NCBI GenBank assembly: GCA_013140935.1
Contig: JABFSD010000168.1
Coordinates: 1 to 5,485, forward strand
Length of the DNA stretch: 5,485 nucleotides
DNA from: Acidobacteriota bacterium
GTDB taxonomy: Bacteria; Acidobacteriota; Blastocatellia; RBC074
Direction of reading: 5' to 3'
The notes under the pieces were generated by a model. That model was not told where the DNA came from, did not search any database, and was given only the letters and a program-made list of their open reading frames with translations. Positions within the stretch are counted from its first letter, which is position 1; each line of letters begins with the position of its first letter. Below are positions 523-1,221 of this stretch, in pieces. Position numbers and translations under genes: made by a program.

Positions 523-1221
523 ATGAGAAAGACGATCTTACTTTTTGCGGCACTCTGGCTGATGACGAACGCAGTTTGGGCGCAACCCAAACCCAGCAGC
601 AAAGCCCAAATGAAAACCGTGCGATTGCACATTGACGGATTCAGCAAGAGCAAGAGCGGCGCGGTCTGAATGGCTTGACCGGAAACGGTCAAACAGGCTC
701 TGGAAGAGCTTGCCGCAGTGAAACAACTCAAGATGTTGCTCGACCGTGACGAATTTCTTGTCACTTACGACGCGACGAAAGCCGATACGAAATTGTTGTT
801 GCGCACCGTCAAGGCGTCGGGTTACACCGCGCAGGTGGTGACAGGCGATACGACAACGGCGACTCAGGTCGCGCAGGTTTTGCCGACGGGCTTCGCGGTT
901 TTGGATGAAGCGTTAGCCAAGGCGAAAGCCGAGAACAAACCGCTCGTGCTTGATCTGTTCGCTGAATGGTGCGCGCCGTGTCGCCAGTTAGAGCGCGTGA
1001 CGTTTCCCGCGCCTGCGGTCAAAGCCTTGCTGGAACGAACGATCTTTTTACGGATTGATACGGACAAGCATCCCGAACTCGCGCAGCGATTGGGCGTCGA
1101 GGGCTTGCCCGACATTCGACTGGCATTGCCCGACGGAACCATCGTGCGCCAGTTGCGCAGCTTTCATACAGCAGACTCGTTAGCGAACGAACTCGAAAAA
1201 CTTTTGCAGCAAATCAAGTAA
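523..1221 (+). CDS. Predicted double-selenocysteine (UxxU) HMA-thioredoxin fusion protein, exported
   Basis: Reading frame 1 from the ATG at 523 to the TAA at 1219-1221, with two internal TGA codons taken as selenocysteine, gives 232 residues. Residues 1-20 are a Sec signal peptide (MRK, hydrophobic core, cleavage after AVWA). Residues 31-106 form a beta-alpha-beta-beta-alpha HMA fold: strand KTVRLHIDG, helix PETVKQALEEL, strand KQLKMLLDRDEFLVTYD, then helix LLLRTVKASGYTAQVV. The two TGAs are residues 49 and 52 (GAV-U-MA-U-PETV), the place of the metal-binding CxxC; the segment between strand 1 and this motif is about seven residues longer than in a canonical GMTCxxC. Residues 124-232 are a thioredoxin domain with active site WCAPC (C150, C153) and probable cis-Pro P196, resembling DsbD C-terminal/DUF255-like thioredoxins. 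These are the only cysteines in the protein. No other stop occurs in the frame. The gene lies 10 nt after the HNH gene and 13 nt before the DUF1552 gene. Function is inferred: periplasmic metal binding or Sec-based redox chemistry, with the thioredoxin domain possibly reducing the diselenide. The alternative is a pseudogene with two nonsense mutations, which would have to hit both motif positions and nothing else. Confidence 0.85.
667..678 (+). other. Two recoded UGA (selenocysteine) codons forming a UxxU motif
   Basis: In frame with the ATG at 523, TGA occurs at 667-669 and again at 676-678, separated by ATG GCT (Met-Ala). Protein similarity to the HMA fold continues on both sides in the same frame, so no frameshift is involved. 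HMA domains have CxxC here, and Cys-to-Sec exchange is the standard relation between selenoproteins and their homologues. Confidence 0.83.
675..692 (+). promoter_or_regulatory. Perfect hairpin with GAAA tetraloop spanning the second UGA
   Basis: TTGACCG (675-681), loop GAAA (682-685) and CGGTCAA (686-692) form a perfect 7-bp stem closed by a GNRA-type loop. The second UGA (676-678) lies inside the 5' arm. The loop begins with G, 12 nt after the first UGA. It may be part of the Sec-insertion signal for the first UGA or of a tandem structure with the next hairpin. The complementarity is seen directly; the role is inferred. Confidence 0.5.
694..712 (+). promoter_or_regulatory. Candidate bacterial SECIS hairpin
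   Basis: CAGGCTCT (694-701), loop GGA (702-704) and AGAGCTTG (705-712) form an 8-bp stem containing one G-U pair (696/710). The apical loop starts 32 nt after the first UGA and 23 nt after the second. As I recall the published bacterial SECIS model, it asks for a 4-16 bp upper stem, a short loop with G in its first two positions, and roughly 16-37 nt from UGA to loop, so this hairpin satisfies it for both UGAs. SelB binding is inferred, not shown. Confidence 0.62.

What the first reader, a model, noticed from the sequence alone, without database searches (positions are those of the whole stretch)
523..1221. Double-selenocysteine (UxxU) HMA-thioredoxin selenoprotein hidden behind two in-frame TGA codons
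A gene caller sees two separate ORFs, but they share a frame and together make one signal peptide-HMA-thioredoxin protein. The only two stops between them are TGA codons three codons apart, exactly where HMA domains carry CxxC, giving U49-M-A-U52. The HMA secondary-structure pattern continues directly across them, and the frame has no other disruption. Random decay would be very unlikely to change just these two positions, both to TGA. Selenoproteins with two adjacent Sec residues in a metal-binding motif are rare, and a diselenide or Se-metal site fused to a thioredoxin would be unusual chemistry. Similar HMA or MerP-like selenoproteins may already be known from metagenomes; I cannot check that here.
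Basis: partly seen in the sequence, partly recalled or inferred. Interest (0 to 1): 0.93.

Follow-up and report, generated by a model that had tools for sequence, protein, structure and literature searches.

The report
Double-selenocysteine metal-binding thioredoxin fusion protein
This gene, like nine relatives in one bacterial class, carries two in-frame UGA "stop" codons exactly where a metal-binding protein has its two cysteines, so it likely encodes an exported protein that would grip metal with two selenocysteines and carry its own thioredoxin domain, a protein that databases mostly hold only as a shortened piece.

Summary
Confirmed: window 523-1221 is one frame interrupted only by TGA at 667-669 and 676-678, aligned with the two motif cysteines of MerP. 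All 10 full-length copies found in 162 genomes of the class keep both TGAs as U-M-A-U; a remote copy in another class has U-F-G-U. In 5 of the 10 the protein's own end falls at a TGA, so the code is not reassigned. Hairpin H2 meets the published bacterial SECIS rules for both UGAs in 11 of 12 sequences and covaries. The host genome has SelA, SelD (with its own Sec codon), tRNA-Sec and a SelB fragment at a contig edge. The protein is a hydrophobic leader, a MerP-like domain and a DsbD-gamma-like thioredoxin. Five of 11 loci lie near heavy-metal efflux genes; the window's does not. UxxU metal-binding selenoproteins were already known (NF041115); I found no record of this fusion. 165 of 171 database relatives fetched are truncated past the site. 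Likely role: exported handling of soft metal, with the thioredoxin domain reducing the Sec pair; untested.

The parts
523..1221 (+). Whole gene, 232 residues plus TAA, with two in-frame TGA codons
523..582 (+). Hydrophobic leader, predicted signal peptide (residues 1-20); two relatives (L034, L035) have lipoprotein-like leaders. By eye; no signal-peptide program was available
   Evidence: sequence; helix 3-18 in the model
610..843 (+). HMA domain, MerP-like (residues 30-107)
667..669 (+). TGA 1, predicted Sec49
676..678 (+). TGA 2, predicted Sec52
670..719 (+). Outer stem 670-674 with 715-719; 88.3% of cells pair, no double changes; weakest part of the structure
675..692 (+). Hairpin H1, overlapping TGA 2; 85.7% of cells pair, core never varies; its loop is 11-12 nt from TGA 1, too near for the published SECIS model
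694..712 (+). Hairpin H2, predicted SECIS for both UGAs; three pairs with changes on both sides
892..1218 (+). Thioredoxin domain with C150-x-x-C153, DsbD-gamma-like

Best explanation
The gene at 523-1221 carries two in-frame UGA codons, conserved at the metal-binding CxxC site of its HMA domain, that are likely read as selenocysteine, so that it would encode an exported MerP-like domain with a Sec-x-x-Sec site joined to a DsbD-gamma-like thioredoxin domain. Shown by calls: the frame, the conservation of both TGAs, the domains, the covarying hairpin, the Sec machinery, and the metal-efflux neighbours of some relatives. Inferred: hairpin H2 recruits SelB and tRNA-Sec for both UGAs. The exported protein then binds a soft ion (Cu(I), Ag(I) or Hg(II)) between two selenolates. 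Its thioredoxin domain, fed by a membrane reductase of the DsbD/CcdA kind, opens the diselenide that forms on oxidation, so the site stays able to take metal outside the cytoplasm and hand it to a Cus-type pump. My odds by step: both UGAs read as Sec 0.95; metal binding at UxxU 0.7; thioredoxin domain reduces the Sec pair 0.5; service to metal efflux 0.5.
For: 10 of 10 full-length copies in 162 class genomes have both TGAs, plus a remote copy in another class. In 5 of the 10 the protein ends at a TGA. tRNA-Sec 67.6 bits with anticodon TCA; SelA 499 bits; SelD 355 bits with its own in-frame TGA at CAGUASK; SelB C-terminus 69% identical over 128 residues to G146's SelB, at a contig end. H2 covaries and fits the SECIS model for both UGAs in 11 of 12 sequences. 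Three of 7 invariant degenerate residues within the element use one codon, against 1 of 29 outside. Both U positions align with MerP's cysteine pair. The thioredoxin half resembles DsbD's C-terminal domain. Five of 11 loci lie near metal-efflux genes.
Against: No experiment. Whole SelB is missing from the fragmented host assembly, and SelB is not over cut-off in the four f7-family carriers (G040, G104, G114, G119), one of them 95% complete; SelA is missing in G104 and weak in G119. SelA is over cut-off in 145 of 162 class genomes, so it does not single out the carriers. L034 fails the SECIS model; three of 10 copies fold little better than synonymous shuffles (L027, L034, L035: 35-65 of 500 reach them); the measure 'further pair types' does not exceed shuffles (457 of 500 reach it). 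Six of 11 loci, the window's among them, show no metal gene.
Confidence: 0.72

Rival explanations
1. A double selenoprotein whose UxxU site is a redox centre rather than a metal site: the HMA fold passes electrons from the thioredoxin domain to a peroxide or disulfide through a diselenide/diselenol couple.
For: The thioredoxin domain adjoins the site and resembles DsbD-gamma, an electron-transfer domain. UxxU redox proteins exist: Prx-like families (PMC13188914 Table 1; PMC2398784 passage). The window's own copy lies beside no metal gene.
Against: The fold and site are those of metal-binding MerP, and five of 11 loci lie near metal efflux genes.
Confidence: 0.25
2. A pseudogene or assembly error: the two TGAs are true stops and only the downstream thioredoxin is made from an internal start, as database entries imply.
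For: Public entries of this family mostly start downstream (165 of 171 at or after residue 53). The window's assembly is fragmented (1235 contigs, 73.8% complete), and one relative, L036, is decayed.
Against: Both TGAs stand in 11 intact copies from 11 assemblies; the upstream half is as conserved as the rest, with invariant residues before the TGAs; a covarying hairpin follows.
Confidence: 0.02
3. TGA is read as tryptophan (code 4), as two database entries imply.
For: P0010 and P0051 show W at both positions.
Against: In 5 of 10 copies the protein ends at a TGA. The host has tRNA-Sec, SelA and SelD. The related proteins have Cys at these two positions. The W letters fit a gene caller using code 4 (inference).
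Confidence: 0.01

Closest known systems
NCBIfam NF041115 UxxU_metal_bind (metal-binding (seleno)protein; PMC13188914 Table 1: UxxU, 2 Sec)
   Same: HMA-type domain with two Sec in a UxxU motif
   Different: 74-position single-domain model; the window scores 33.2 bits against a cut-off of 95 and adds a thioredoxin domain. None of 162 class genomes has a match over its cut-off
MerP (TIGR02052; PDB 1afi, 1osd)
   Same: Fold, and position of the ligand pair
   Different: MerP has Cys-x-x-Cys and no thioredoxin; 36.2 bits against a cut-off of 92.55
MerT_CopZ_Se (NF045683), MerT/CopZ fusion-like heavy metal transport selenoprotein
   Same: A metal-binding selenoprotein made by domain fusion
   Different: Partner is a MerT-like transport part rather than thioredoxin; 28.6 bits against 375
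DsbD C-terminal (gamma) domain, PDB 2fwf; and TsoB (NF045694), rhodanese/DsbD fusion-like selenoprotein
   Same: Thioredoxin half; TsoB also has two Sec (PMC13188914 Table 1)
   Different: No DsbD membrane part in this 232-residue protein (63.8 bits against 330); TsoB's motif is UxxxxU in another domain (54.1 bits against 805)
Sec-containing MerP of ocean metagenomes (PMC2398784, passage)
   Same: A MerP named as selenoprotein, two sequences listed
   Different: No motif or fusion given in the passage I saw

Membership tests
Bacterial selenoprotein | In-frame UGA aligned with Cys of non-Sec relatives and conserved among homologues | tested here: met
Bacterial selenoprotein | SECIS element meeting the published model (loop 3-9 nt, G in first two, 16-37 nt from UGA, MFE <= -7.5) | tested here: met
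   H2 alone: 11 of 12 sequences for both UGAs; L034 fails
Bacterial selenoprotein | Host Sec machinery (selA, selB, selC, selD) | tested here: met
   selA, selC, selD whole or nearly so; selB only as a C-terminal piece at a contig edge
Bacterial selenoprotein | Selenium in the protein | not testable with these tools
   needs 75Se label or mass spectrometry
HMA domain (PF00403) | Gathering score 24.8 bits | tested here: met
   29.8 bits with C for U
NF041115 UxxU_metal_bind | Curated cut-off 95 bits | tested here: not met
   33.2 bits
MerP (TIGR02052) | Curated cut-off 92.55 bits | tested here: not met
   36.2 bits
Thioredoxin_7 / Thioredoxin (PF13899, PF00085) | Gathering scores 27 and 23.5 bits, with CxxC | tested here: met
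   50.3 and 48.4 bits; C150-x-x-C153
DsbD | Whole-protein cut-off 330 bits, membrane domain included | tested here: not met
   63.8 bits, thioredoxin part only
Metal-efflux accessory protein | Conserved linkage to efflux genes | tested here: inconclusive
   5 of 11 loci, not including the window

The most novel reading that the evidence does not exclude
A two-selenium metal site with a built-in reductase: one SECIS hairpin decodes two UGAs three codons apart, making an exported selenolate-pair metal trap whose own thioredoxin domain resets it after oxidation and which feeds Cus-type pumps. Some relatives (P0010) may carry a third Sec in the thioredoxin site, a selenium relay within one chain.
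Probability: 0.35. Interest if true: 0.78.

Novelty: new variant of a known kind. Interest (0 to 1): 0.64.

Why it matters
Databases mostly hold only the thioredoxin end of this protein: 165 of 171 related entries fetched begin after the site, so its exported, metal-binding, double-selenocysteine half is invisible. The family makes two questions testable: what two selenocysteines gain at a metal site, and whether one bacterial SECIS element can direct two closely spaced Sec insertions. It also ties selenium to metal efflux in a group of bacteria known here mainly from metagenome assemblies.

Tried and rejected
Rfam on the window gave no match at gathering thresholds. The genome-contig scan with P0001 gave four loci that match only the thioredoxin part (32-50% identity), so relatives came from the genome search.

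I first took G000:C961 (160.9 bits) for SelB and noted it so. It is EF-Tu by my reading: it lies next to a 701-aa frame of elongation-factor type, as does a 405-aa frame in G119. The SelB piece is on C1070.

A Cys-x-x-Cys full-length form was looked for and not seen: of 171 proteins fetched from two searches (143 and 312 hits, best 120 of each listed; the second scored only 8000 candidates), two have W at both positions, four start at the Met between them (three MAC, one MAW) and 165 start at or after residue 53. The phylum sample (396 genomes) and the 41 genomes of G404's class gave no further full-length copy beyond G404's and those already in the class list.

NF041115 matches occur in 103 of 162 class genomes, none over cut-off. 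Two of its hits with one TGA inside (L112, L116) proved to be ordinary proteins with CxxC that end at that TGA.

The gene-machinery link is uninformative, since SelA is over cut-off in 145 of 162 class genomes. Literature: searches for the fusion gave nothing; some searches gave listings. I read parts 1 and 2 of 3 of section 7 of PMC13188914 and passages of it, and passages of PMC12013277, PMC2398784, PMC9312934 and PMC1794560.

Full report
Observation. The + strand frame 523-1221 starts at ATG 523, ten bases after the previous ORF, and ends at TAA. It holds two internal stops, TGA 667-669 and TGA 676-678. Read through, it gives 232 residues: a hydrophobic leader, an HMA domain (PF00403, 29.8 bits, cut-off 24.8) and a thioredoxin domain (PF13899, 50.3 bits, cut-off 27).

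Conservation. A six-frame search of 162 genomes of the class found 10 full-length copies, the window included, each with exactly two TGAs inside. All 10 read U-M-A-U after a conserved KSxSGA stretch; the nine relatives are 46-72% identical to the window. A copy in another class (G404, L060) has U-F-G-U. A further copy (G114, L036) keeps both TGAs but is decayed elsewhere. In 5 of the 10 (L028, L031, L032, L033, L035) the protein's own end falls at a TGA, so TGA is still a stop in the same genes.

Database view. Two protein searches gave 171 different relatives (best 120 of each listed). Aligned to the window, 165 of 171 start at or after residue 53, four start at the Met between the two positions, and two span the site with W at both.

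Sec machinery. In the window's genome (6.09 Mb, 73.8% complete): tRNA-Sec 67.6 bits, confirmed by ARAGORN with anticodon TCA; SelA 499 bits; SelD 355 bits with one TGA, at ACAGUASK; and a SelB C-terminus, 69% identical over 128 residues to SelB of G146, running to the contig end. SelB is over cut-off in 7 of 12 carrier genomes; the exceptions are the window's genome and the four f7-family carriers G040, G104, G114 and G119. SelA is over cut-off in 8 of the 10 intact class carriers (weak in G119, none in G104) and in 145 of 162 class genomes. So the machinery permits the reading but does not single out the carriers.

SECIS. Two hairpins and a weaker outer stem follow the TGAs. H2 (694-712) pairs in 95.8% of cells of 12 sequences, and its three pairs with changes on both sides are the only ones in the structure. 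Over the whole structure 90.4% of cells pair, against 23-43% when partners are slid, and the covariation score is 0.132 against 0.080 in shuffles; the count of further pair types (6) does not exceed shuffles (6.1). The U-A to C-G switch needs 3 changes on the protein tree, 2 of them forced by well-supported branches; in it, a silent Ala-codon change goes with a Glu-to-Gly/Arg change, which points to selection on RNA. H2 alone meets the published model (PMC13188914, passage) for both UGAs in 11 of 12 sequences, with 31-32 nt and 22-23 nt spacing; L034 fails. H1 overlaps TGA 2, its core never varies, and its loop lies 11-12 nt from TGA 1, too near for the model. Against synonymous-codon shuffles the folding energy gave z from -3.6 to -1.2 in 10 copies; in three (L027, L034, L035) 35-65 of 500 shuffles were as stable. 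Of invariant residues with several codons, 3 of 7 inside the element use one codon only, against 1 of 29 outside.

What the protein is. The best solved relative of the HMA half is MerP (1afi, E 5.9e-8): its GMTCAACP lines up with the window's GAVUMAUP. That these cysteines hold mercury in MerP is recalled. AlphaFold2 gives pLDDT 86.7, pTM 0.73. By fold, the thioredoxin half is nearest to DsbD's C-terminal domain (2fwf), and the HMA half matches MerP 1osd (TM 0.92 by target length).

Context. Eleven loci were examined. L093 and L094 share one gene order: outer-membrane channel, small lipoprotein, CusB-like adaptor, this gene, two cupredoxin-like proteins, then a CusA/CzcA pump over cut-off; L093 also has a DUF305 protein. 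L091 has pump, channel, adaptor, then this gene. L092 has a heavy-metal P-type ATPase before it and channel, adaptor and pump after it. L088 has the end of a P-type ATPase 1.9 kb upstream. Channels and adaptors of L091, L092 and L094 were named by BLAST grouping with L093, not by their own Pfam scan. The other six loci, the window's included, share no such gene in that grouping and have no pump hit on the contig; neighbours in five of the six had no Pfam scan, and some contigs are short. CusA/CzcA-type matches are not rare in these genomes (2-19 each at E <= 1e-50), so the linkage is suggestive; I did not test it statistically.

Mechanism. I commit to an exported handler of a soft metal ion, with a selenolate pair as ligand and the thioredoxin domain as its reductant. 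Sec reading is strongly supported; metal and electron flow are inferred from fold, site and neighbours.

Novelty. PMC13188914 Table 1 (read) lists NF041115, a UxxU metal-binding selenoprotein, and MerT- and ATPase-type metal selenoproteins. PMC2398784 lists a MerP selenoprotein from ocean metagenomes (passage). I saw no HMA-thioredoxin fusion in that table, and two searches for it found no paper. The window scores 33.2 bits against NF041115's cut-off of 95. I rate it a new variant of a known kind.

Noticed in passing
P0010 (237 aa, 12 member sequences): W replaces both U positions and also the first Cys of the thioredoxin CxxC (AEWWAPC), so a third Sec is likely; its DNA was not seen.
   Followed up: partly
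P0062, P0064, P0066: They begin MACPET, at the Met between the two positions, so this branch probably has Sec-x-x-Cys instead of Sec-x-x-Sec; DNA not seen.
   Followed up: no
L024 (G000:C34:2447-3376): The host's SelD has an in-frame TGA at its known Sec site (ACAGUASK), a second predicted selenoprotein in the same genome.
   Followed up: yes
L036, about 1450-2300 (G114:C81): A decayed copy that still keeps both TGAs and the hairpins intact.
   Followed up: partly
G040, G104, G114, G119: Four carriers of one family without SelB over cut-off, although G040 is 95% complete and has SelA: incomplete assemblies, or contigs or genes from elsewhere.
   Followed up: no
window 1235-2557: DUF1552 (HXXSHH) protein with a twin-arginine-like leader starts 13 bases after the gene and may be co-transcribed.
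   Followed up: no
window 2657-3282: Small ORF overlapping a PIN-domain ORF, in the layout of a toxin-antitoxin pair.
   Followed up: no
L112 and L116 (G022:C87, G019:C2): MerT-like membrane proteins followed by two CxxC HMA domains in one chain; the architecture was named by eye.
   Followed up: partly
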